Source: Chaetoderma sp. LZ-2023a (lineage: Eukaryota > Mollusca > Caudofoveata > Chaetodermatida > Chaetodermatidae). Taken from it: a stretch of DNA of 64,000 nt. This document shows, in pieces, positions 4,790 through 60,335 of this stretch (position 1 is its first letter; the number at the start of each line of letters is the position of its first letter). A model generated the notes under the pieces. That model worked only from the letters and a program-made list of their open reading frames with translations, did not search any database and was not told where the DNA came from. The DNA lies in NCBI GenBank assembly GCA_034401795.1, contig CM067366.1, positions 75,965,707 to 76,029,706 on the forward strand, read 5' to 3'. Position numbers and translations under genes: made by a program.

Positions 4790-7310
4790 TTATGTCTAAG
4801 CTTCTTCAAACAAGAAACTGTGCTCGACATCCTCGGACGACGCGGTCTTCCCAGGAACTTACCATAGTTCCATGGAATGTACGTGGTCTGAGCACAACAT
4901 CAACGAGGCAAACCTTATGTGCAGACTGTGAATGCAATACCATCGATAGTACATGCATTCAAGAGACTAAAGTAGCTAAAAAAACCCAGAGCAACAACTA
5001 TAGAAGGCCATAAGCTAGTACTCATAGAGCTCGAACATACCACATACCTGGGTTTAGGGTTACTAATCGGGCCAAGGGTCTTGGACCATTTCATCTGTTT
5101 TGGATACGTCAGTGACTGCGTTGCATTCATCAACTTGGCTATACCTACGTGAAAACACACCACCACTAAGTGTCACATAGTCAACGTATATGGCCCAACT
5201 ACCGAAAAGCCAAAGAGAATCCAGCAATATTTTATTCTTTCCATGCAGAACTGCGCTCGGCCATTACAATACCAGGTAGATGGCAACTGTTCGTGTCTGA
5301 AGATTTCAACTCCAAGTTGGGTAAACTCGGAATTGTGGACAAAGGTTCAAGACTTGGCCTATGCATAGGATCGCATGGAGAGGGCACAGGAAAAAGGAAT
5401 GAAGACGTACTGGTGGCATTCCTTAGTTCCAATGGCTTATTTGCCACCAGTATGGTTTTTAAACACCCATGCCATCTCCGGACAACATGGACTGGACACA
5501 TTGCTGATCGCAAAGACCCACAAGAGTCTAAGGCTACAATAGCTGTCTTCAATCAAGTAGATTTCAGGCTATGCAAGACAGAATCAAAACCCCTCCTTCG
5601 GGATGTTGGTTCCTACTAAGCCATAAGCCAGCCACACGGCTTCAGATGAACAATCTCTACCTAATTATAAGAAAGTAGAGTCAACCTCAACCTACCCAAG
5701 CTTATCAGCGATACTGATACTCAAATGTCATACAAAAAGACCCCCGGGAGCAAATAGCTAACATCGATCTCAGCTCCAATCCAAACGACGCCCTAATCAA
5801 AATACTAAATTATATGGCATCAACAGCTACCATCACCATATGTGTTCTTAAAAACAACCGAACTAGGTATACTGATGACCCTCTAGCAGTAAAACTGTCA
5901 GCAGAGCAGAAAGCGTGGCCAAGGTGAAGACCACACCAAACTACGCTGGGAGCGCAATAACATTCTGCATCGCATTAGCGAACGCTTAAAAGAGCTTGCT
6001 ATTCATCAAGCAGACGCCCTAGCAGATAAAATGACAGCCATGGATGACTGTCACAAAATGTTTCGGGCAGCCCGAGCCCTGACAGTTACGGACACAAGTT
6101 ACACACACCACTTACTGTACACAAATATGAAGGACACTTTATCGGGACTGACCAGGGCAAAGCCGAGGCGATTCGAGAATGGTTCAAGGAACAGTTCACT
6201 GATCACGATGTGGGGCCCTTGCACCCGTTCTCCGGAGACCACACGTCATTACTAAGACCAATTAAAACAGCAGAAATTGAGAAGGCACGTGTATCTGGGC
6301 CTGATGGCACGAGCAATGAACTATTTAAATATGCAAGCGACATTATCTCAAAACCGACCACGCACCTAACCAATTCAGCTTTTATGCACCACATTCGCAT
6401 CTACGCTGTAGGCCAAGGCATCCTTATCTCACTACCCAAGCCCAAGAAGCCAGCTGGCCCCAGGCAATCTGCGGCCCATTGAATTCATCAGCAGCGTACG
6501 GAATGTCATATCCAATGTTACTCTATACCACATCCGAGAGAAGATAGATGTCTTCACCGGATCATGGCAAAGTGGCTTCAAACGTGGACGCAGCTGCGCA
6601 GACATTGTATGGGTTCAATGTATGCATGTGCCGGTAGCCATGTCCAAACACTGGAATTTCCACAAAATGGGAATTGGCATGTCACGAGCCTGCGACACAA
6701 TTAAATGTTCAACGATCCTAGATGTACTACACCAGCTCAGTTGCAATGAAGATGAGCTACGACTAGTGAGATTACTTCTTGCAGACACCAAGCTGAGAGT
6801 ACGAGTCAAGTCAGTGAAGTGTGTTGAATTTGAGAAAGTAATCAACTCCCCACAGATTATCTATCTCCTGTGCTTTTCACCTGTTACCTTGCTGCTACAT
6901 TGAAATCCGTGCTGGAAAGTTCCACAAGAGAACCCCCAACCCGCCCACCCCATCCCACCCCACATCATCAATACTGGGCATGCCGCTAGTGATGGACTAT
7001 GCCGACGACGTGGAGTTCATAGACGAGGAAAGGAAACCCCTTTCCGAACTTCTCACAATAGCTGCAAGCAAACAAAAAATTGAGAATATCTTTATGAATG
7101 AATGCAAAACAGTCCACCTGCATATACATATCTACAAAGAATAAAACTGAAGAAAATAACGACCCACCTCGTGACGCTGAACCGTGGAGGAAAGGTATAC
7201 ACCTGGGCTCACTACTTTGCAGTACTGCTGACTTTGCTGACGCTGCATCATGTGGGGCCTAGCTTTTCAGTCCTTTTGGAAGATATGGATTCGTAGATCG
7301 TAGCGTATAC
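4790..7310 (+). pseudogene. non-LTR retrotransposon (APE endonuclease + reverse transcriptase), decayed
   Basis: Consecutive plus-strand fragments read as one LINE ORF2. An endonuclease/exonuclease/phosphatase domain begins with LTIVPWNVRGLS and CIQETKV (about 4855-4970), then continues in another frame with FVSEDFNSKLGKLG, RTTWTGHIADRKD and NQVDFRLCKTE (5170-5620). The reverse transcriptase follows: KARVSGPDGTSNELFKYASD (about 6280-6345), LPKPKKPAGP, GFKRGRSCADIVW and LRLVRLLLADTKLRVRVKS, then the catalytic box as DYADDVEFIDEE near 6990-7030. After that the frame decays, ending near AFQSFWKIW about 7255-7290. Several frameshifts and stops separate the pieces, so no functional protein is made. 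The family aspartate of RT motif A appears as MSRACDTIK, with Cys before Asp. I assign it only to APE-type LINEs, not to a clade. Confidence 0.85.
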
Positions 7311-7879: not shown

Positions 7880-8655
7880 GACACCTCTTTTCCTCAGCCG
7901 AAATACTTAGCTTCCTAAGGTCCATTCTTAATTTTAGTGTACCGAGTCCTGCTTTCTTGAGGTCACCTTGTAGCACGTATAGCAGATTTATGCAATGATA
8001 TGCTCTCCTGGCTTTGTATTTGCTGGCTCCGAGTAGGGCGAATTCAAAGGCTCTCTGTGCTGGTGTGTCTTCAGGCATTCTTAGCATATGGCCAAACGAA
8101 GACCATCTTTGCTGGGCGATCTTTACAGACAGCTGTGACGAATTACACATCTTGTATAGGGCATCGCTGGAAATTCTGCTGTCTGGCCATCGGTGTACAG
8201 TGATGGTGCGTAGGTGATTGCGGTGGCAGGAATGCCCAGCTATTACACTTATACAGCATCAATGATATGCAGGTTGCATTGTATAAAGATAGTCTTTTTA
8301 CCAAAGGCATCTTTGATATACGATTCCATATCTTCCAGAAGGACTGGAAAGCTAGGCCCCACATGACGCAGCGTCAGCAAAGTCAGCAGTACTGCAAAGC
8401 AGTGAGCCCAGGATTGGACCTTTCCTCCACGGTTCACGGTCACGAGGTGGGTTGTTATTTTCCTCAGTTTTATTGTTTGTAGATACATATATTAAGTTGA
8501 ACTGTTTTGCATTCATTCATAAAGAGATTCTCAATTTGTTTTTTACTTGCAGCTATTGAGAGAATTTCGTCAAAGGGTTTCCTTTCAGCGTCTATGTAAT
8601 CCACATCGCCAGCATAGTCCATCTCTAGCGGCATACCCAGTATTGACGCGACGTA
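7880..8655 (-). pseudogene. LINE 3' part on the minus strand (same family as 4790-7310)
   Basis: Read on the minus strand, 8650-8560 gives a decayed RT catalytic box (LEMDYAGDVDYID-like, with YAGD for YADD). Then follow an AFQSFWKIWNRIS segment (about 8310-8360), LSLYNATCISLMLYKCNSWA (about 8240-8300), and the C-terminal RWSSFGHMLRMPEDTPAQRA (about 8045-8110), ending in a basic Lys/Arg-rich tail near 7880. Stops and frameshifts break it. It overlaps in content with the 3' end of the plus-strand copy, so it is a separate insertion facing it rather than a simple 5' inversion of one copy. Confidence 0.8.
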
Positions 8656-18384: not shown

Positions 18385-18500
18385 ATTCGACCTTTACATT
18401 TGCAGATCTACCCGCCTATCTCTATATAAACTCCAACCACACCTCGCTCGTGTTGTGATCGATCGATCGCTATACTTCCTGACAACACACGTGTCATGCG
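18385..18500 (-). mobile_element. MITE family 1 copy cut by the assembly gap
   Basis: The reverse-orientation start is recognisable (CGACCTTTACATTTGCAG, CACACCTCGCTCGTGTTGTG, GATCGATCGATCGC). It breaks off at the N run before the palindromic core. Confidence 0.7.
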
Positions 18501-19000
18501 NNNNNNNNNNNNNNNNNNNNNNNNNNNNNNNNNNNNNNNNNNNNNNNNNNNNNNNNNNNNNNNNNNNNNNNNNNNNNNNNNNNNNNNNNNNNNNNNNNNN
18601 NNNNNNNNNNNNNNNNNNNNNNNNNNNNNNNNNNNNNNNNNNNNNNNNNNNNNNNNNNNNNNNNNNNNNNNNNNNNNNNNNNNNNNNNNNNNNNNNNNNN
18701 NNNNNNNNNNNNNNNNNNNNNNNNNNNNNNNNNNNNNNNNNNNNNNNNNNNNNNNNNNNNNNNNNNNNNNNNNNNNNNNNNNNNNNNNNNNNNNNNNNNN
18801 NNNNNNNNNNNNNNNNNNNNNNNNNNNNNNNNNNNNNNNNNNNNNNNNNNNNNNNNNNNNNNNNNNNNNNNNNNNNNNNNNNNNNNNNNNNNNNNNNNNN
18901 NNNNNNNNNNNNNNNNNNNNNNNNNNNNNNNNNNNNNNNNNNNNNNNNNNNNNNNNNNNNNNNNNNNNNNNNNNNNNNNNNNNNNNNNNNNNNNNNNNNN
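18501..19000. other. assembly gap (500 N)
   Basis: Exactly 500 N, so the length is probably a placeholder. The 16 bases before it (ACACACGTGTCATGCG) are the perfect reverse complement of the 16 bases after it. All open frames spanning it are meaningless. Confidence 0.99.
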
Positions 19001-19017
19001 CGCATGACACGTGTGTT

Positions 19018-26039: not shown

Positions 26040-26097
26040 TGGCATAACAGAGGAATATTTTGGCTATGTCCACCACTTCCTAGTTAAACTCCGTTCA
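26040..26097 (-). mobile_element. left part of a MITE family 1 copy split by the Polinton
   Basis: TTTTGGCTATGTCCACCACT and CCTAGTTAAACTCCGTTCA match the reverse-orientation start of family 1. The copy resumes at 33753 with TGTTTTGCGCG. Removing 26098-33752 restores a collinear match to the copies at 43030 and 63750. Confidence 0.75.
26088..26097. repeat. putative target-site duplication (left)
   Basis: ACTCCGTTCA occurs here and again at 33743-33752, just outside the two inverted repeats. Polintons usually duplicate 6 bp, so part of the 10-bp identity (CGTTCA being the minimum) may be coincidence at the element tip. Confidence 0.75.
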
Positions 26098-26440
26098 GCA
26101 GTTACGTGTGGGGATGTACGTTATTGTTGTGGATCGGTACGCTATTGTTCTGGAACAAAATAATTATGGATTCTTTTGTTCTTGAACAATGACGTACAGC
26201 TGCCAACACAATGACGTACAGCTGCCCAAACAATGACGTACAGCTGCCCAAACAATTATGTACAGACCCCCATGAAACTGAAATTCTTTTACTGTGTGTC
26301 GTCTGTAGGTGATTGTTGTGCGGCTATACGTGATTGTATTTTATTTAACAATGTCGTCGAGAGGGTTGGGGGTGGTGGTGTAGAGAGAACAATTTTGTCC
26401 ATGTGTATAATAAAATAATGTATATATGTGATTATAATAA
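26098..26440. repeat. Polinton left terminal inverted repeat
   Basis: Matches the complement of 33518-33742: AGTTACGTGTGG, TGTACGTTATTGTTG, AATTATGGATTCTTTTGTTC, CGTACAGCTGCCCAAACAAT, TTTAACAATGTCGTC and TGTGTATAATAAAATAATG, in the same order. This arm is longer because a unit of about 22 bp containing AATGACGTACAGCTGCC is tandemly repeated three to four times near 26185-26265. Confidence 0.9.
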
Positions 26441-28605
26441 TACACGATTTGACTGTAAGTTGTTGGTGGCTTAACCGACATCGTTTTACGGGCAAGTTGT
26501 TTTTTAAATACTTAATAGGTGCTGTGATATAGTGTGTGCAATAACGTCAGCGGTTAGATTTTGTTGCCGCTCGATGTCATTGTCTCGTTTACGACAAAAT
26601 ATCAGTAATATGCGTCTGAAAGCAATGATTCACGCATTTAAGGACTCCTAATAGTTGTGAGCTCAAGCGATCGATATCCTTTCATTCTGTATGATAAAAA
26701 GATTATTTTTCACCCGTAGTAAAAGTTTAATTTAACCATTCATCAGTGACGCATTAGCCGTGAGATATGTCCTTAATCGAGATACAAACATGACACATGT
26801 CAAGGAATAATGAAAAAACGTACACAGTACTTATTTGTACCACACGTCTTGTTCTAGGCATTATATTTTAGAAATATTTAGTAATTCAAAATTACTATTA
26901 AATTATCGTCTAGTTCACTCACCAGGAGATAAAGTGTTTTTCTCTTTGTAGCTATGAATGTGTGCTTCTCTTGACAGTTTTGTGTACAATTTTGAATGGA
27001 ATAAATACTGCAATTTATACCGTTACATGTTTTGGTTTGCATTATTGTTCACACTCGTGCGCAATTCGTTTCCCAGTTCTTAACCGAGTGGACATATGGA
27101 CTTGTTCCGTCATCAATTACTCGAATATCTTGTTTTGGATTTCACGCTAGAGATTGTGCATATTTATAAGGGGGTGGAATTATGCGTGAATATATGTATA
27201 AATACTATGTTTTTTCCTTCGTGCATCGCATTGCTCATGTTAACATTAAACATGGACGCTTCAAACAGGCCAGCTTTTCTGATGTTAGACCATGCCTATG
27301 ATCTCTCGGCCACCATTTGATCTAATAATGGCACTGGTATATTAAGTTATGAAACCACACATGACCACGATGAAAGGCGTATCATTATTCACCTTACTGT
27401 GGAATACGTGGTAGAACACTACGCACCTGTACTGTCGGAATCTGGTTCTGAACCATCTTCCATGGCATAAGGGTGTCCTACGTGCTATCGCATATGCACC
27501 CCACACACACACGCACCTCACGCGACAACACATACACAATCACACATACTGGCATACCCTCTCACGCATAGTGCCACATGCGTGCCCTGCCTCCTCTAAG
27601 CATACCCATGTATGTATTCTCTGTTTCATTCGCCTGTACATCGTGTATGTGTGCGTGCGTGCGTCTTTTATGCACCGTATACATGCGTGCATATGTCGTG
27701 TATGTATGCAGCAATGATAACGAAGTTGATACTTCATATTCAGCCATTTGTTTTAATTACGTTCATCCAGTTCTGTTAGATATTCTCTCCAGCGGTTCTG
27801 GATTCCGCGCATTACCTTTTTAAATGGCTGCTGAACCGGTACTTCGTTATATCTGTTCCACTCCACGCATCTACACCTAATCAGTATAGAGCCGATTGTT
27901 TACCAGCGATTGCATAATAGAGATTTGTTTTCCATTTGCACTTTGCAAATTCAAAAAGATGAATGCCTTACTGGTAGCGTGCATTTCCCTTTTATAGCTA
28001 AAATATGAATGCTGTCAGTGAAACTAACTTTCCAATCTGAACACGCACTTATTTCAGCCATATGGGTTTTTTCCAACGCTTAAAATTAACATCTTCTGGA
28101 TTTCAGAACATAACTATGCAGACAATTGCATGTACAAAATTCATTTCTTCATGCCATAGATGTTTGAGTGGCATTATTTTATAGAAACTAGAATTGATAT
28201 GAGTGTCATTAATACACAGAATTCAATTACGGATGAGAACATGTCATACAGTTTCCCGCATTCAGATATTAAAACCACACATATTAGCCAATAATTCATG
28301 CGAATATGATTAATTAGTGTATTGATTTGTTATCATTGTGGGGCGCTGCATGCTCCTAGTGTAACATTATTCGTTAACCATTATCGGAATGCTTTCGCAT
28401 TAAAATGTGTTCTTCCACTGGTGTGTATAAAAAAATGGTGATAATTATGGATGGTGGTTGAGGGGTGATAGAGGAAGAGGTTAAGGGAACGCGAAGAAAT
28501 AATAAACTTATTCAAAAAAAGCCGATACATTTTTATGATAAATAAATATTACGGACATTTATTCGTAATAATTATATTCTTAATGAAAACATAGCAGACA
28601 AATAA

Positions 28606-29094
28606 TTAAACATTAAGCATGATATTTTTTCTCTGTTTATTCATAATCCTGCGCATCACACATTTCACTATAGTGTCATTTTTGTCTCTGTTTATTAGCG
28701 CCCATAATATATGCTTCATTTGTACACCTCTCGAACGATGATAAAAGAAATATACACAATAATATCCGCAAGTAGTCATCGTTGCTGGTTGAACACGATC
28801 ATTGTTGAAATAATAAACACACGCATGGCGTCCATTTTGCACATTTGATATCATTCTTCCATCTGAAGGGCGTCTTCTATAAGGATCGACGCATTCAGCA
28901 TTTCCATTTCTAGTGTAATAAACCGCCACCCATTGCTGTCCAGATTTATTACGGGGATGTGTGTTTATTACTAATGAAGCCAGGCGATATTTACTATGCA
29001 TAGGCACATTGTCAATTGGAAAAATGCAGAGAAATTGTTCAGGCATTTTATTGTCACTGAATAATAGATCCTCTATTTCAAATGTATTCGACAT
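28606..29094 (-). CDS. adenovirus-type cysteine protease of Polinton (catalytic His replaced)
   Basis: An uninterrupted 162-codon frame. In Polintons this protease family (related to adenain) is thought to process virion proteins. Visible landmarks are the strand normally carrying the catalytic His, here SGQQWVAVYY (Gln54 where His is expected); an acidic residue in ECVDPY (Asp70); a Gln at residue 102 in the oxyanion position; and the nucleophile in TTCGYYCVYF (Cys109). The basic C-terminus and length are normal for the family. The start ATG is preceded within about 10 bases by the end of the capsid remnant, the expected gene neighbour. The CAA codon at residue 54 predicts an inactive enzyme even though the frame is open. 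Identity is confident; activity is doubtful. Confidence 0.85.
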   Translation of the reverse strand: MSNTFEIEDLLFSDNKMPEQFLCIFPIDNVPMHSKYRLASLVINTHPRNKSGQQWVAVYYTRNGNAECVDPYRRRPSDGRMISNVQNGRHACVYYFNNDRVQPATMTTCGYYCVYFFYHRSRGVQMKHILWALINRDKNDTIVKCVMRRIMNKQRKNIMLNV

Positions 29095-29104
29095 ATGTTT
29101 TAAT

Positions 29105-29905
29105 AATCTGTTAGTACGTTAAAGTCTGATCCAATTTCTACTGTATTATAAAATTCAGTTTAACACATTATGTTGGTTGTAGTGGAAAGAGCTTGAGCAA
29201 AATGGAAAAACACCCTTAACAAACCAGTGCGTGTAGGGTAGCGATGATCTGAATCAGCTAGATCTGGTTTAAAATCACATGCAAACAGCAGGGTTCCGAG
29301 TCTGAACTGTGGCTTACTTATCAGGTAACTTTGAATAACACCCCAGTACCGCTGAATATTGAGAAATAAGCGTCAGAGTAAATGTTGTCACTAAAAAAAG
29401 TCTGTATTTGTGATGTTTTAATCTCTTCCCCATTTATATAACATGTAGCGTAGGTAGTGTTATTGTTATCAAACTTGAACAGATTTTACTGTACCACCCC
29501 ATTATATGCATCATTTGGTAGAAAAGTGAATACTACTCTAGTAGGAAGCTATCCAATAAATATAGTATCTCTACCAATGGGCATAGCGCCATTAGGTACA
29601 GTAAAAGTCTTACACACTACACATTTAATAGGATAGTATATGCTTGTCTGTCTGTAACTGCATGCACCACTAGCAGATCTGCTAATAGAATAACTTTGCG
29701 TACAAATAAGTTAGCAGACAATATTTTCAGTTTAGGCCTCACTCCTACTGCAGCCATACTGGCAAAGACACCTTTACTCCGCTGTTGACATACTCTTAAA
29801 TCTACAGAACCGAGAAGGAATCGGTCCTGCAGAAACATGTCACTGTGTATGCGCCGCATTAATTGTACTGTTGTACTTTCAGCCATTATTATTCTGCGAG
29901 CTTGA
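29105..29905 (-). pseudogene. Polinton major capsid protein (double jelly-roll), decayed and N-terminally deleted
   Basis: Minus-strand fragments in successive frames match the Polinton/adintovirus-type capsid. RRIHSDMFLQDRFLLGSVDL and LSANLFVRKV lie in the open frame 29617-29961. After a frame change come TFTVPNGAMPIGRDTIFIG, then VFTFLPNDAYNGV, NTTYATCYINGEEIKTSQIQ, YFSIFSGTG, and a final LLRVFFHFAQALSTTTNI leading to the protease start. At least one frameshift (near 29620-29650) and several stops interrupt it. The first jelly-roll's N-terminal part is missing; its place is taken directly by polymerase sequence. Assignment rests on motif order and on the adjacent protease. Confidence 0.75.
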
Positions 29906-31560
29906 AATCCTAAGTTAGTATCGGTGATCGATTCAGAAATTAAAGTCTTAAATCTAGACATGGCTAAACGTAATACAGTTACGTCATCATTACAATATTC
30001 GATGAGATTTTTATCAACATCGTAGTGCTCGTGTCTAGATATCTGTTCGGTGTATCAGCAATCAAATTCAATCAATTCATTCACATTCATATTTTGTGGA
30101 CAGAATAGCTCCCTCTTGGGAAATAGTATTACCTTTCCCCAATATTGAGGCATGTTGAGCTGATGGAGAAATGCCCACTTATGAACAGGAAAATTAAAAG
30201 CATCGCCCATCTTACGCAATGAAAGAGGAAAAAAGTTTATGGAATCGATAAAACGTATATTGCCTATGTCAAATGAGAGAACTGCATAGCCACGCATAGT
30301 ACTGTTTATAGGTTTAAGGTGTATGTTAGCGGTTTTGCAAATGCATTGAAGGAGTAAAAGAGAATCACAGATGCGAGCATTGTGCATGATCACGAAATAG
30401 TCAGAGAAAACATATTATCTATTGAATTTTTTGCCAGCATACATAGCCTTAACACGTGTCAGCCAGCTAAAGAACTGATCCACTGCGTCTAAACCATGAA
30501 AGTGAAAATATCCATAATTCATGCCTCGATGACATGTAGAGCAATGGTCTTCGAGCGGTTGGTTGATGCATGCATCACAACATACCATTGGCTACCACGA
30601 AATTAACTTTATGCTCTGCAAGAATATTAGTATTGCTACTTTCAATAGGCGATAAATATGTTTCTGTATCGTAAATAATTTATTTTTGAAAATCTTCATA
30701 TTTACAAATGTCAGCATCCTTATGTATAGAGTGTGCATGGGATAATGACAATATAGGTTCTTCAATTACTATATGATAACATGTGTGATTTTCAGTAATG
30801 ACAAACTTCTCTTTACACGCGTAACATTTTGTCATACCACGACCGTGGTCATCACCATCTTTATGAATGCGAATGAAACAATGGGGACACACCTTCACGA
30901 TTTCACAGGTCTCATTAGAGAGGTGGTTCGCCATACATTAATGGTTATAATACTTCCAATGGCAATCATTACACATTATTTTATGCAAAGCACCTGTAGA
31001 AATACAAGATCCTTTATCAGAATAAGGGGTCATACAACTACGACACCGCACTGTGCATGTGTGATCACTAGCGTATGATGCATTACACTGTATATAGTGA
31101 TTACGTACCATAAGAAATGCGGCGATAGACGTGATCAAGGACATATGATTAGCGCATTATGAATGCATAGGTTTGATACATGGTACACTCATGAAATCAC
31201 TACCGAATACGTATACATGTGTCGACTCTGAGTAGACTTGAATAGAAAATTGATTGGGAAAGTGTTCCTGAAATTAATACCAATCAGTACTATTAATTTC
31301 ATGTTCAGGAATAAAGCAAGCTGTATGATACTCACGTGCCATATGCGTCAAATATGTTTTATTGCGTATCAAATTACGCCATCCACATGTAGAGATTAGT
31401 TTGCTCATTTTCTCAATACATTTTATTCCTAAAAATATTCCTGCCGCGAAACAGAATGTATATTCAGCGCAAATGGGTATAATACATTTTTTAATATCGA
31501 TGTGTGCATCTATATCAGATAAAGGTAAATTCAATAAATTTAAATGTATAGTATTGGTCG
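29890..31560 (-). pseudogene. Polinton protein-primed DNA polymerase B, exonuclease part only
   Basis: Read on the minus strand, fragments follow the order of Polinton PolB. An N-terminal helical part holds YLTHMAREYHTACFIPEHEI. Cys/His-rich zinc-binding segments follow (CRSCMTPY, CPHCFIRIHKDGDDHGRG, CYACKEKFVITENHTCYHI). Next come CCDACINQPLEDHCSTC, exonuclease motif II as HNARICDS, FIDSINFFPLSLRKMGDAF, and exonuclease motif III as EYCNDDVTVLR near 29965-30000. Stops occur, for example a TGA at about 30055-30057 just before YTEQISRH and others near 30415 and 30590. The polymerase palm and thumb are absent: the frame passes into capsid sequence after about 29920. The protein would normally replicate the element using a terminal protein primer. 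Confidence 0.8.
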
Positions 31561-31894
31561 AACCTAGGAGAGTATCATTTCGCCCACCTGAGTAGTAGCC
31601 CTCTACGTGAAAACGTGAAATTCAAAATCTTCTGATAACCTACCATCAGTGTTTGATTGAATAACTTTTTCCACTGATTCTAAAATTACGTCAGGCATAA
31701 TTTCATTCCATAGCCTAAAATCCATGGCTATTGGCATTTCCAAAGAAGGGTGCATCAACTTGATTCTCATGTGGTCTTTCGGCTGAGATTTATTTTTTCG
31801 CTATACATATCTAGCAAAGGTTGAAAGGCACCAGACACGAACTCAGAATGAGTAAGTGGTGTATCAGCTATAGGATAACTGCTAAAAATACTTT

Positions 31895-33035
31895 CTATTC
31901 AGTACCTTCAATACCATACATTTTACTGCGGTATTTGTGCACAGTCTCCACAGATATATAGTCAGTATAATCAAATACCGACCTTCCAATTTGAGGGTAC
32001 TCACAGCGAATGCATTGTAAATAATGATTAAGAAGGTCTTTGGTAAGCATTATATTCTCCGATATACAATGAGCGATTTCATCAGCGATGAGCCTAAATT
32101 CATCTTCTGTATGATTTGCATGCATATCAATAAGAATTTTTTGAGTAGGAATGATTACATCACAGCAATAATAAGCAGTTAAGCAGAATTATCATCATTA
32201 GGAAGGCGAGCTAAATCCAGGGATAGGTCATTAGGAGAAGACGCAATGCAGTCAGGAACTGGCGCAACATCAAACAAATTTAGGTCGTGTCCATCACGTA
32301 CGTTGGTTGAAGCAGAATGGATAGGTTCGATTACGTCATATTCATAAACATTATGAGGATAATTGAAAAATGATGATAATGATGATGATGATGGTACGGT
32401 ACTAATATGAGGAATATATAGTTCAGTTCTCGTATGAGCGGCTAGATCATCGGTAGAAGCATGATCAGTAGGCACGTTTATGTCATAATCAATAATATTC
32501 TGAGGATAAATGCTAAAGGATGACACGGGAATAAATAATTCAGGAATTAAGTCTTCGATGTCATGAGTAGGCTGATATACAGCTTTATCATCCATACAAT
32601 TTAAGTTACGCACATTTTCTGCTCTATCAACGGATCCCACAGACTCCATACTTGGGAATACATCAACTCCATAATCATAAAAATGATCTGGATAATTGAA
32701 TACCGACGCATCAGTATTCATAATGGTCAGTTCAGGAATGACTTCGCAGTAATCAGGAACAAATACAGAGTTGTCATTGCTTTAATTTACATTACTTACT
32801 GCAATGTCATTATGCTCATCAGATGCACACATTTGTGGAATTGTAACGTCAGGATGATAAAACGTAGCATCCAAAAATGTAAGGTTATCAGCATGTTCAT
32901 CAGTTGAAAAGGGTAGATCCAGTTTAATCCAACGACATCAGAGTCATGCATCTGCTGCAAAATCGCATTAACGGCATTTTCACATTCGTTAACTCTGTCC
33001 CTTAAATTAGCTGCCATTTTGCAAGGTAATAACAT
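31895..33035 (-). pseudogene. unrecognised acidic ORF region upstream of PolB
   Basis: A minus-strand frame opens with MAANLRDRVNECENAVNAIL near 33016, shifts frame near 32915, and continues through a 180-codon open stretch (32179-32721) rich in Asp, Ser, Pro and Tyr. That stretch contains three imperfect repeats: VFNYPDHFYDYGVDVFP, FSIYPQNIIDYDINVPTDHA and FFNYPHNVYEYDVIEPIHSA. A further 76-codon helical stretch follows (31895-32125). Since no other gene intervenes, this may be an N-terminal extension of the polymerase ORF or a separate element-specific gene. I recognise no family. Low-complexity acidic sequence with Tyr-rich repeats suggests a disordered protein. Confidence 0.45.
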
Positions 33036-33517
33036 GTAATGTCTTTAACGCACACTTATTTACTTCTCGTTGATCAAATATTCTTTTTAATTATTCTTTT
33101 ACAATCTATACTCAATAAGTAAATATTAAGAATGTTAAAAGAACAAATATTAAACTTCAGAGATCTGACAATTACCTGGTGAATAAAGCCGTTCTATTTA
33201 AGCTCACGTGCAGTGAAAAAATACGCGCCAGGCAGATGCCGGCCGCGAACCTCAGCCCTCCTCCTCCTCCTCACCTCGATTATACGACCACCTATACGTC
33301 TTATATTTTAACCCATATACCTCAGTAGCTAACGCCAGAGGGGGTGGGGTGCACGCAGCTAGTTTAAAACGTAAAATACCAAACTTTTAGGGGTTACTAT
33401 TTTTGTTATTTACAAGTACACCGCAAAAGACACGTCTACTAACACACCATTCTTCTAAATTCAGGGAAGACATTCTCATTTAGACTATATCAATTTTATG
33501 ACACTATTCACCCCAAA

Positions 33518-33742
33518 TTATTAGATCACATATATGCATTATTTTGTTATACACGTGGACGAAATAGGTCTCTCTACGCCCCCATTGACGACATTGTTAG
33601 ATAAAACACAATCACGTACACGTACATCATTGTTTGGGCAGCTGTACGCCATTTTATCGAGAACAAAAGAATCCATAATTCTTTTGTTCTAGAACAATAA
33701 CGTACAGATGCCCAACAATAACGTACAGCTCCACGCGTAACT
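33518..33742. repeat. Polinton right terminal inverted repeat
   Basis: Complement of the left repeat, about 225 bp. The tip reads CACGCGTAACT followed by the direct repeat. Here the GTACAG unit appears as two diverged copies (AACAATAACGTACAG). The DNA between 33036 and 33517 is AT-rich with a CTC-rich patch near 33255-33280 and no gene. Confidence 0.9.
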
Positions 33743-33752
33743 ACTCCGTTCA
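33743..33752. repeat. putative target-site duplication (right)
   Basis: ACTCCGTTCA, identical to 26088-26097, followed immediately by the resumed MITE sequence (TGTTTTGCGCG). Confidence 0.75.
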
Positions 33753-34100
33753 TGTTTTGCGCGTTTTGTGATCGATGTATCTACGTTGAACCCTTGCATT
33801 CTCAGAATCCCATTTCAAGGTACCGTATTTATATAGATAACCTGTTGAATATTTTGAAACTAATTTGACAGCACGCAGTAGTAAACCTATCAGACATAGC
33901 ATTGGTATACTTGATGGAGTATGACAGGTACAGGATGGCGTATTCTCTGTCAATTATGATTGTGACGTCATCATACATGTGCCGTCATCATAGATGTGAC
34001 GTAATGCACTTCATTTTAGAAATCAATCAACCCTGCCATGATAGTCTGGAAGCTACAATCAATTCAGCCAATTTTACCATTAATAGTACCATTCATCATA
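33753..34100 (-). mobile_element. right part of the MITE family 1 copy split by the Polinton
   Basis: TGTTTTGCGCGTTTTGTGATC, TTGAACCCTTGCATTC, AGAATCCCATTTCAAGGTAC and the arm GAATATTTTGAAACTAATTT, then the CRE-like tail with GTGACGTCATCATACATG. The second palindrome arm is lost. Confidence 0.75.
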
Positions 34101-56341: not shown

Positions 56342-57997
56342 TATACACCTGTGCAAAAGTTAAGCACCAGCAAAAACAATAGAACGTAGAAACATGATGG
56401 TACAACTAGGCTGCCATACTTTTTGTCCCCGCGTTAGCTGACATATTTCCAAGTACGAAATGCACATGCATGTATGACTTCACGCTGCTTGATGTCCGTG
56501 CGTGGCGGGAAACAGCACACGTGTTCAGTTATGTAAAAGTCCAGTTTGAGGTCTAGAACATTACATACAGATTTAGGCGACAAGATTAGGAATTTTGTGT
56601 TCATGACCGTGGTTTATTTGTACAGAGAGAATTAGCTCTTGATTGTGAACCGCTATGGCAAGACGAAGGTTAAGTGATCGTGTGAAATGGCAAATCATAG
56701 GCATGCATACCACTGGTATGTCATGCAGAGAGATTGGCAGACAGCTGAACATTAACCATACTGTAATCAGTCGTTTGATTGCAAAACATGGGCAAACTAA
56801 CGAGGTGAACGACAGGCCTAGATCTGGAAGACCGAAGAAGACTACTGCCCGTGATGATCGAGCCCTAGTACGCCTTGTTAGGAGATCTCCATTCACCAAC
56901 AGCAGAGTGCTCAGCCAGCAATGGGAAACGCGCAATAGAGTGTCAATGTCTACCGTCAAAAGGAGACTGTATGCTGCTGGCATGAAAGCTATGTGACCTG
57001 TTAGACGTCCTCTCCTCATTGCACACCACAAAGAGGAGCGTCGGAGGTGGTGCAACGAAAGAAGACACTGGAACATGAGATCCTGGAGACGGGTACATTG
57101 GTCCGATGAAAGTCGGTTCCTGCTTCATGCCACAGATGGTCGAACTCGTGTATGGAGGGCCAGACGCACGGCGTACGACCAACGTAACATCATGGAAGAA
57201 GTTCCATTTGGTGGAGGTTCCGTTATGATATGGGGGTGCATCTCATTTGATTGTAAGCTGGATTTGTTGACTGTAGCTGGAACACTAAATGGACAAGATT
57301 CCATACTGGATAGAGTTGTGGTCCCTCATTTTGTAAATCATGCACCTGGAACCCACCCTATATTCATGGATGACAACGCCCGACCACATCGTGCTAGAGC
57401 TGTGCATGAATACCTCCGCCAGAATGCCATCGAAACCCTACCATGGCCAGCAAGGAGCCCTGACATGAACCATATTGAGCATATCTGGGACATTCTGGGA
57501 AACATGGTGAGAAGGAGGGATCCTCCTGTGCAGAACCTACATGAATTAACAGATGCACTCCATCTTGAATGGCAACGAATACCACAATGGCGTATCAGTC
57601 GGTTGGTGACCAGCATGAGACGTCGTGTCCAGGCCGTCGTCCAGGCACAAGGTGGATATACCCGGTATTAATAATGACAGTCTCAAACTCGTGCACAGAT
57701 GTTAAACTTCGTTTTCAGACACCATTAATGACAATCTAGCCACGTGTGTCAACTGTAGGGCAATAGTTGTCAGTTGTGTCAACGTAACCATATTCAGGCC
57801 TCGTTTTCAAGTTCAAACAAAAACATACAGTGTTTCCCCACCATCATAATCAGCATTCCTCTAGTTGCATTATTACCTCTTGCACTAAGATGGATGGGTA
57901 CATAAATGTTTATGCTATTGCTTTCTTCATAGCACATGAATATACCCTCGCATGTTCGTAAAAATAGGGTGGTGCTTAACTTTTGCACAGGTGTATA
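56342..57997 (+). mobile_element. Tc1-like DNA transposon (about 1.65 kb)
   Basis: Terminal inverted repeats: CACCTGTGCAAAAGTTAAGC at 56346 and its exact complement ending at 57993, extending to ACCA on the inner side and TATA on the outer side. The TATA includes the TA target duplication expected for Tc1/mariner elements. It encloses one transposase gene. Length, repeat and gene layout are those of an essentially complete element. Confidence 0.95.
56655..57671 (+). pseudogene. Tc1-like transposase, single in-frame stop
   Basis: 338 codons in one frame, interrupted only by TGA at codon 114 (56994-56996). The N-terminus is a paired-like helix-turn-helix region (MSCREIGRQLNINHTVISRL, about 20-50), then a basic GRPKKT linker and a second DNA-binding part. 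The catalytic domain shows the first Asp in HWSDESRF (151), a GGGSVMIWGCIS block, the second Asp in FMDDNARPH (240) and Glu in NHIEHIWD (275). That is 34 residues between them, so DD34E as in Tc1. Tc1 enzymes cut and paste their element at TA sites. The stop precedes the catalytic domain, so this copy should be inactive unless read through. Otherwise it is unusually well preserved for this window. Confidence 0.93.
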
Positions 57998-58871: not shown

Positions 58872-60335
58872 CTTTCATAATCTGTGCCTGATGACTTTAA
58901 ATCTGCAAATGTAATGCCACTACTGAAGAAACCATCTCTAGACTCTGATGTGCTTACAAACTACCGTCCAGTGTCCAATCTATCATATATCTAAAAAATG
59001 TTAGAAAGGTTTGTCGCTGATCGTCTAAATAGTTACCTGGAAGCTAACAATCTTCTCGAACCTTACCAGAGTGCATACCGGAAGTTACATAGTACAGAAA
59101 CAGCACTACTGCGAGTGCAGAATGACATACTATGTGCCATGGATGATCGTAAGTGCGTTTTACTTGTGTTGCTAGACTTATCTGCTGCATTCGATACCAT
59201 CGACCATAATCTCATGCTGTCACGTCTGCAGGAACTAGGCATAACTGGCACCGCGCTGTCCTGGTTCAAATCCTATCTCACTGGTCGCTATCAGACTATC
59301 ATCGTAAAAGACAACAAATCATATTATCGTGAACTATTGTCTGGCGTGCCACAGGGGTCGGTTTTGGGCCCTCTGCTTTTTACGATCTACACAGCACCTC
59401 TCGGTTGCTTATTACAAAGTCAGGAAATTGATTATCATCTATATGCTGATGATACCCAATTGCATTTGGCCTTCCATCATAGCAATCAAACAAACGCTCG
59501 TGAGATCTTAGAACATAGCATTCGCGAGGTGAAGCTCTGGATGCTCAACAATCTCCTACAGCTCAACGACAATAAGACTGAAATCCTGCTAATTTCGTCA
59601 CGTCAACGCAGGTCCAAAATTGACATCGAGCAACTTCAAATTGGACAGAATAACATCAAATTTAATTCTAATGCTCGCAACATCGGGGTAATCTTCGATG
59701 ATGCGATGTCAATGGACAATCACATAACATCAGTTTGTCAATCACTATTTCGGAACTTTAGAGACATTAATAGAATACGGAAATTACTTAGCGGGGACGC
59801 AATTAGGTCACTTGTCCATACCACCATCACATCTAAACTAGATTACGGCAACTCACTGCTAGCTGGCATCACCACCGAACAACAACACAGACTTCAGAGA
59901 GCACAAAACGTAGCAGCTAGACTAGTAACACATTCTCACCGTCATGACCACATAACCCCTGTACTTAAACAGCTTCACTGGCTACCCGTTAAAGAGCGAA
60001 TCAACTACAAAATTGCACTTCTAGTCTTTAAATGCCTGCATGGACTTACACCACTATACCTCTGTTCGTTGATAACGAAGAGAATAGCACCAAGATCCCT
60101 GCGATCAAGCGAGCAACTGTTGTGTGTAATTCCATGGCTGGACAACGAGCCTTTTCAAAAGCTGGCCCAAATCTCTGGAACAACCTCCCGGCACACATTC
60201 GGAACTGTGATAAACTTGAACCTTTTAAGTCTCTTCTAAAAACGCATCTTTTTTCTTAAAATTTTAATTTTGTAAAGCGCCCTTGAGCGATTAAATTCGG
60301 AATCGGCGCTATAGAAATACCTACATACATACATA
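58872..60335 (+). mobile_element. CR1/L2-like LINE, 5'-truncated
   Basis: Starts mid-ORF with [20 protein letters not shown] and ends in a CR1/L2-style tail. After the coding end come AATTTTGTAAAGCGCCCTTG and CGGCGCTATAGAAATAC, then a short tandem ACAT repeat instead of poly-A. The endonuclease and first ORF are missing, as is usual for LINE insertions truncated during target-primed reverse transcription. Confidence 0.9.
58875..60259 (+). pseudogene. CR1/L2-like reverse transcriptase, 413-codon open stretch plus frameshifted end
   Basis: The main open frame runs 58998-60239. Upstream, the same frame continues to 58875 but meets a TAA at 58992-58994, just before KMLERF. Reverse transcriptase motifs are intact: motif A LLVLLDLSAAFDTIDHN (Asp60), motif B GVPQGSVLGPLLF (117-129), motif C YHLYADDTQLH (YADD 149-152), thumb-like LNDNKTEILLIS, and the C-terminal LKQLHWLPVKERINYKIALL typical of CR1/L2. 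A frameshift near 60110-60148 moves the conserved ending (RAFSKAGPNLWNNLPAHIRN and FKSLLKTHLFS) into another frame, closing at 60259. With one stop, one frameshift and no endonuclease it cannot retrotranspose alone, but it is a recent-looking copy. Confidence 0.92.

What the first reader, a model, noticed from the sequence alone, without database searches (positions are those of the whole stretch)
26098..33742. Miniature Polinton/Maverick with intact ends but without polymerase palm, integrase or ATPase
Sequence shows 225-343 bp inverted repeats, a flanking 10-bp direct repeat, and PolB-exonuclease, capsid and protease remnants in only 7.6 kb. Established knowledge: autonomous Polintons are about 15-20 kb and carry integrase and ATPase. 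Inference: either a deletion derivative mobilised in trans as a defective-interfering-like element, or a full element that shrank after insertion.
Basis: partly seen in the sequence, partly recalled or inferred. Interest (0 to 1): 0.75.

Follow-up and report, generated by a model that had tools for sequence, protein, structure and literature searches.

The report
Old Polinton with a private deletion
This is an old, dead copy of a virus-like transposon (a Polinton) in a large eukaryotic genome that lost its middle through a deletion seen at no other place in that genome, so this copy shows no sign of having moved in its short form, although a different short family with Polinton ends in the same genome did spread.

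Summary
The element is real: window 26097-33745 (7,649 bp), inverted repeats of about 344/228 bp, a perfect 6-bp target duplication (CCGTTC), and broken remains of protease, capsid and PolB exonuclease; no palm, integrase or ATPase was found. The host assembly is held (2.44 Gb). Related elements carry the missing genes. The join at 29927/29928 is one internal deletion of about 8-9 kb with 1-2 bp of microhomology. It looks private: the junction 24-mer (up to 3 mismatches) has 1 place genome-wide, against 681 for a capsid-side 24-mer at the same point, and 0 of 39 other scored relatives cover both sides. Repeat divergence (K2P 0.11-0.14) explains about 54-96% of the element's terminal branch, so shrinkage after insertion is the best reading (0.8); a deleted form mobilised once is not excluded. 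By-product: a separate short lineage. Of 31 terminus pairs, 10 are under 10 kb; at least 6 of those 9 besides the window share an interior with a broken exonuclease fragment (872 places genome-wide) and, in the two read, no mobility gene was found. It presumably moved in trans. A zebrafish repeat name (Polinton-1N1_DR) suggests such forms are catalogued. New member of a known kind.

The parts
26091..26096 (.). left copy of the 6-bp target duplication CCGTTC
   Evidence: sequence printed
26097..26440 (+). left terminal inverted repeat, starts AGCAGTTACG; holds 22-bp tandem units at 26185-26272
26444..27831 (.). stretch without a recognised gene, conserved in relatives (K2P 0.107-0.198 over 26444-27700)
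28609..29118 (-). adenovirus-type protease remnant, open, but the column I take for the catalytic His (recalled) reads Gln
   Evidence: Peptidase_C5, E 5e-4; alignment to L034
29103..29928 (-). major capsid protein remnant, N-terminal part missing, several frames and stops
   Evidence: name and recall
29927..29928 (.). deletion junction, 1-2 bp of microhomology
29928..30694 (-). PolB exonuclease remnant, frames broken; palm and later parts missing
   Evidence: (DNA_pol_B_2)
31618..33044 (-). coding remnant upstream of the exonuclease, conserved in relatives; taken for the PolB N-terminal region (recalled likeness, no Pfam match)
33518..33745 (-). right terminal inverted repeat, ends CGTAACTACT
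33746..33751 (.). right copy of the 6-bp target duplication CCGTTC
   Evidence: sequence printed

Best explanation
A full-length Polinton of about 16 kb inserted here with a 6-bp target duplication (shown: ends, duplication, same-family relatives with the missing genes; inferred: that a Polinton integrase did it). Later, while resident in the chromosome, it lost one internal segment of about 8-9 kb (PolB palm, ATPase, integrase, minor capsid, N-terminal part of the capsid protein) by end-joining at 1-2 bp of microhomology (join shown, mechanism inferred), and the rest decayed. It is an immobile fossil, not a moving miniature.
For: Junction 24-mer with up to 3 mismatches: 1 place, the window; reversed control 0. 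Capsid-side 24-mer under the same rule: 318 + 363 = 681 places, reversed control 3; the 100 listed all have the undeleted last two bases. Spanning query: 1,814 candidates, 40 scored; the window alone covers both sides, 12 cover the capsid side, 27 the PolB side. Fetched copies stop or start at 29927/29928: L031, L038, L043, L045 and L035, L037, L040, L044. Relatives hold the missing genes. Both halves of the window have the same nearest copy, C9:121.9 Mb, lowest K2P in 4 of 5 segments. Half the TIR distance (0.055-0.068) is 54-96% of the window's terminal branch (0.071-0.100), so little of that branch precedes insertion.
Against: The timing is rough: few TIR sites, wide range, assumes TIRs identical at insertion. 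Only 40 of 1,814 candidates were scored, and one of the 12 capsid-side copies (C9:7022550-7022990) runs 13 bases past the join and was not read. In a local test the junction pattern would have found 10 of 16 combinations of relatives' halves, so a diverged sister copy could be missed. The control pattern differs from the window by only two bases, so it counts capsid-side copies and does not prove each of the 681 undeleted. Single-copy forms cannot show whether the deletion came before or after insertion.
Confidence: 0.8

Rival explanations
1. The deletion arose in a replicating, extrachromosomal Polinton genome (defective-interfering-like), and the shortened form was integrated once here by proteins supplied in trans.
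For: Ends and target duplication are intact; both ends needed for integration are kept; another short lineage in this genome did move; 4-46% of the terminal branch may precede insertion.
Against: No second copy with the join; most of the branch is after insertion; other copies show their own, different internal deletions, as ordinary decay would give.
Confidence: 0.14
2. The element is a recombinant of two different Polinton copies (ectopic exchange) rather than a deletion within one.
For: The family is large (1,814 candidates), so exchange partners are plentiful.
Against: Both halves are nearest to the same copy in 4 of 5 segments; one pair of flanking duplications fits one insertion. Trees give weak support for any sister.
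Confidence: 0.04
3. The join is an assembly error between two collapsed Polinton copies.
For: High-copy family; reads were not available.
Against: Perfect duplication in flanking sequence and K2P of about 0.09-0.2 to the copies compared make a collapse unlikely.
Confidence: 0.02

Closest known systems
Polinton/Maverick elements, degraded copies (vertebrate survey PMC8097293, passages and section 6 read)
   Same: Inverted repeats, 6-bp target duplication, protease, capsid and PolB remains; the survey% of loci eroded.
   Different: This copy lacks one internal block of about 8-9 kb; the survey passages I read do not describe such a case.
C9:121.9 Mb and C13:25.36 Mb elements of the same genome
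   Same: C9:121.9 is the nearest copy read (K2P 0.089-0.132 in five segments). C13 has the same kind of terminus.
   Different: They carry PolB palm, ATPase-like pieces, chromodomain and, in C13, a clear integrase domain.
Polinton-1N1_DR of zebrafish (one passage of PMC9341505)
   Same: A repeat name that by recalled Repbase custom marks a non-autonomous Polinton.
   Different: Sequence not seen; the passage gives only its use as a promoter. The window's copy is single, not a family.
Other short Polinton-ended lineage of this genome (C9:3411363-3419181, C16:124264585-124271945)
   Same: Similar length and ends, PolB exonuclease remains.
   Different: Different interior, multi-copy, no protease or capsid found, younger repeats (98% alike).

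Membership tests
Polinton/Maverick | long terminal inverted repeats with AG...CT ends | tested here: met
Polinton/Maverick | 6-bp target site duplication | tested here: met
   CCGTTC on both sides
Polinton/Maverick | protein-primed PolB | tested here: inconclusive
   exonuclease only; palm absent; palm present in relatives
Polinton/Maverick | retroviral-type integrase | tested here: not met
   absent in this copy; rve + Chromo in the C13 relative. So a defective copy, not an autonomous member
Polinton/Maverick | packaging ATPase | tested here: not met
   absent in this copy; Pox_A32-like in relatives
Polinton/Maverick | adenovirus-type protease and major capsid protein | tested here: met
   as broken remnants: (Peptidase_C5, below cut-off); capsid name and recall
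mobile non-autonomous (trans-mobilised) Polinton | several insertions share the same internal junction | tested here: not met
   window junction found once, with control
mobile non-autonomous (trans-mobilised) Polinton | for the other short lineage: shared interior at different sites with own duplications | tested here: met
   two elements read; interior pieces at 40 of 40 scored places each
mobile non-autonomous (trans-mobilised) Polinton | mobilisation by proteins of a full-length element | not testable with these tools
   needs experiment or recent-activity data

The most novel reading that the evidence does not exclude
The genome holds a separate, high-copy family of short (about 5-9.5 kb) Polinton-ended elements that spread without any integrase, ATPase, polymerase palm, protease or capsid gene that I could find in the two copies read. 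They carry a C2H2 zinc-finger ORF, minisatellites and a PolB exonuclease fragment broken in the same way in both. They would be satellites of full-length Polintons that recognise nearly identical ends, and deletions like the window's are the raw products from which such families could start.
Probability: 0.6. Interest if true: 0.5.

Novelty: new member of a known kind. Interest (0 to 1): 0.33.

Why it matters
For this element: intact ends and a target duplication on a short Polinton do not by themselves mean that the short form moved; here the junction test points to a deletion at one locus. For the genome: it offers a private deletion and a spread short family side by side, together with long elements that still show an integrase ORF, which makes trans-mobilisation of Polinton ends a testable question.

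Tried and rejected
Considered and rejected or set low. (1) A moved shortened form for this copy: junction found once. (2) Integrase or ATPase hidden inside: none found. (3) Recombinant of two copies: both halves nearest to the same copy in 4 of 5 segments, though tree support is weak. (4) A 10-bp duplication: 6 bp is flush with the termini. (5) Relatives in IMG/VR viral contigs, searched with the protease and one exonuclease piece: none confirmed. A protein search with the protease: 3 candidates, none at E <= 0.001. (6) Rfam at gathering thresholds: no match. (7) Papers: searches. One search, for five phrases naming non-autonomous or mini-Polintons and 'Polinton-1N1', gave one paper, PMC9341505, of which I read one passage. 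PMC8097293: passages and section 6. PMC10294476: two passages. PMC6431247: passages. Other papers: listings only. Kapitonov and Jurka 2006 was not read.
Full report
What is there. The window lies at G000:C8:75965707-76029706 of a 2.44-Gb assembly in 2,753 contigs. The element spans 26097-33745 (7,649 bp). Its arms align over 344 and 228 bases, with a local alignment score of 282 against 76-102.5 in five shuffles. It starts AGCAGTTACG and ends CGTAACTACT, with CCGTTC on both sides. A terminus pattern made from it and relatives has 121 + 129 places in the genome and none when the pattern is reversed, so the ends belong to a large family.

Genes. On the minus strand, from the right end inward, lie a coding remnant that I take for the PolB N-terminal region (31618-33044; recalled likeness, no Pfam match), the PolB exonuclease (to 30694), the junction, the capsid remnant (29103-29928) and the protease (28609-29118). 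PolB and capsid are in several frames with stops. The protease frame is open, but the column I take for the catalytic His (recalled) reads Gln, where the two relatives' ORFs that show this part read His. For the missing genes, 13 relatives' protein pieces gave no match inside the element at E <= 0.1.

Relatives. The C9:121.9 Mb copy (about 17 kb between its ends) has palm pieces (DNA_pol_B_2 profile 212-283 and 368-413 of 468) and a chromodomain; the C9:36.1 Mb copy (about 16 kb) has ATPase-like pieces (Pox_A32 E 0.002 and Adeno_IVa2 E 0.0043, both below cut-off). A piece that I labelled integrase in C9:121.9 had no Pfam match alone, but it is 86% identical over 112 residues to C13:25.36 Mb, where the ORF has rve (E 1.9e-12) and Chromo (E 3.3e-13) and resembles foamy-virus integrases of known structure. 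The C13 ATPase passes the Pox_A32 cut-off. Not all long relatives are complete: C9:36.1 lacks a match to window 29929-31404, C9:121.9 lacks 29684-29949, and C5:16.2 lacks 31034-32790, so copies carry different internal losses.

The junction. From the capsid side, copies stop at 29927 or 29928 (L031, L038, L043, L045); from the PolB side they start there (L035, L037, L040, L044), or at 29950 (L033). The join shares 1-2 bases with both sides. Genome-wide, the spanning query had 1,814 candidates, of which 40 were scored: the window covers everything, 12 cover only the capsid side (ending at query 425-429, one at 442, that is 13 bases past the join; it was not read) and 27 only the PolB side (starting at 428-431). 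The junction 24-mer with up to 3 mismatches has 1 place; a capsid-side 24-mer that ends two bases past the join has 681, with 3 in its reversed control. That control counts capsid-side copies: the window itself would fit it with two mismatches; all 100 listed places have the undeleted last two bases. The reach of the junction pattern, tested on relatives' halves: 10 of 16 combinations lie within 3 mismatches, and 4 of the 6 misses involve one copy, L044; two loci (L033, L034) were not placed and were left out. The missing segment measures 8.2 kb in C4:39.17 Mb (two rows) and about 9.0 kb in C9:121.9 Mb (rows), so the parent had about 16-17 kb.

Timing. TIR distances (K2P): the window 0.109 (whole) and 0.136 (first 89 bp), C9:36.1 0.106, C9:121.9 0.026. 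In trees of four segments (19, 7, 6 and 15 rows, some rows being overlapping pieces of one copy) the window's terminal branch is 0.071, 0.079, 0.100 and 0.079. Half the TIR distance, 0.055-0.068, is 54-96% of that. So most of the time in which the deletion could have happened lies after insertion; this is an inference with wide error.

The other short lineage. Pairing the ends (100 of 250 ends listed) and (all 54 ends of one type, 17 pairs) gives 31 distinct pairs closer than 30 kb: 10 under 10 kb, 2 of 11-13 kb, 16 of 15.5-18.8 kb and 3 of 21.5-26.6 kb. One of the 10 short ones is the window. Two others were read: C9:3411363-3419181 and C16:124264585-124271945. Their interiors are collinear in blocks at 90-97%, their own arms are 98% alike, and their duplications are AGGGTT/AGGGTT and GACGTA/GATGTA, 5 of 6. 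Of Polinton genes only an exonuclease fragment is found, split over the same three frames in both; the next best hit is a 21-residue minor-capsid match near one end of C16 (E 0.013), the others have E >= 0.086. The query with this fragment had 1,819 candidates; 40 of 40 scored match over all 501 bases at 96-100%. The C2H2-ORF query had 1,760; 40 of 40 scored match over 727-738 of 738 bases at 89-100%. A 30-mer of the fragment with up to 3 mismatches has 434 + 438 = 872 places and none in the control; this counts fragments, not whole elements. Of the 9 short pairs other than the window, 5 hold one of the listed places or 117 and a sixth (C16) was read; of 21 longer pairs, 1 holds one (C4:18945240-18962173) (the lists are capped, two contigs' places were left out, so absence is not shown). 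The C2H2 ORF has dN 0.068 and dS 0.087 between the two copies, no clear constraint. The integrase-bearing C13 element shares the first 34 bases exactly with C9:3411363 and 88% over some 870 bases of the arm with C16. I infer mobilisation in trans; the step itself is not shown.

Verdict. The element is an ordinary Polinton fossil; the contrast within one genome is moderately interesting.

Noticed in passing
G000:C9:3411363-3419181 (L049, L050) and G000:C16:124264585-124271945 (L051, L052): A different short lineage with Polinton ends, shared interior and no mobility gene found; a 30-mer of its broken exonuclease fragment has 872 places genome-wide.
   Followed up: partly
L049:3096-3626 and L051:2949-3584: C2H2 zinc-finger plus acidic ORF in the short lineage (zf-C2H2 E 0.0025, below cut-off); dN/dS about 0.8 between two copies, no clear constraint.
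   Followed up: partly
L049:2401-2987 and L050:1426-2198: Minisatellites with units of about 20-21 bp inside the short elements, one of them directly beside the exonuclease fragment.
   Followed up: no
L031/L032 and L037: Other long or partial relatives carry their own, different internal deletions of PolB.
   Followed up: partly
L055:2268-3137: Integrase ORF with chromodomain, open over 289 residues, in the 15.7-kb C13 element; the nearest database protein is 62% identical.
   Followed up: no
window 26185-26272: 22-bp tandem units within the left inverted repeat, fewer in the right one.
   Followed up: no
window 18484-19017: Run of masked bases (N), which reads as a perfect inverted repeat in the repeat search.
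   Followed up: no
window 56649-57671: Two adjacent ORFs that look like a Tc1/mariner-type transposase (recalled likeness, not searched).
   Followed up: no
window 58995-60239: 414-residue ORF that looks like a reverse transcriptase of a non-LTR retrotransposon (recalled likeness, not searched).
   Followed up: no
window 6968-7299 and 8315-8646: 332-nt inverted repeat, 88% complementary, 1,015 nt apart; possibly another mobile element.
   Followed up: no
window, 24 places listed (for example 33837-33882): 46-nt interspersed repeat found again and again across the window, one copy close to the element's right end.
   Followed up: no
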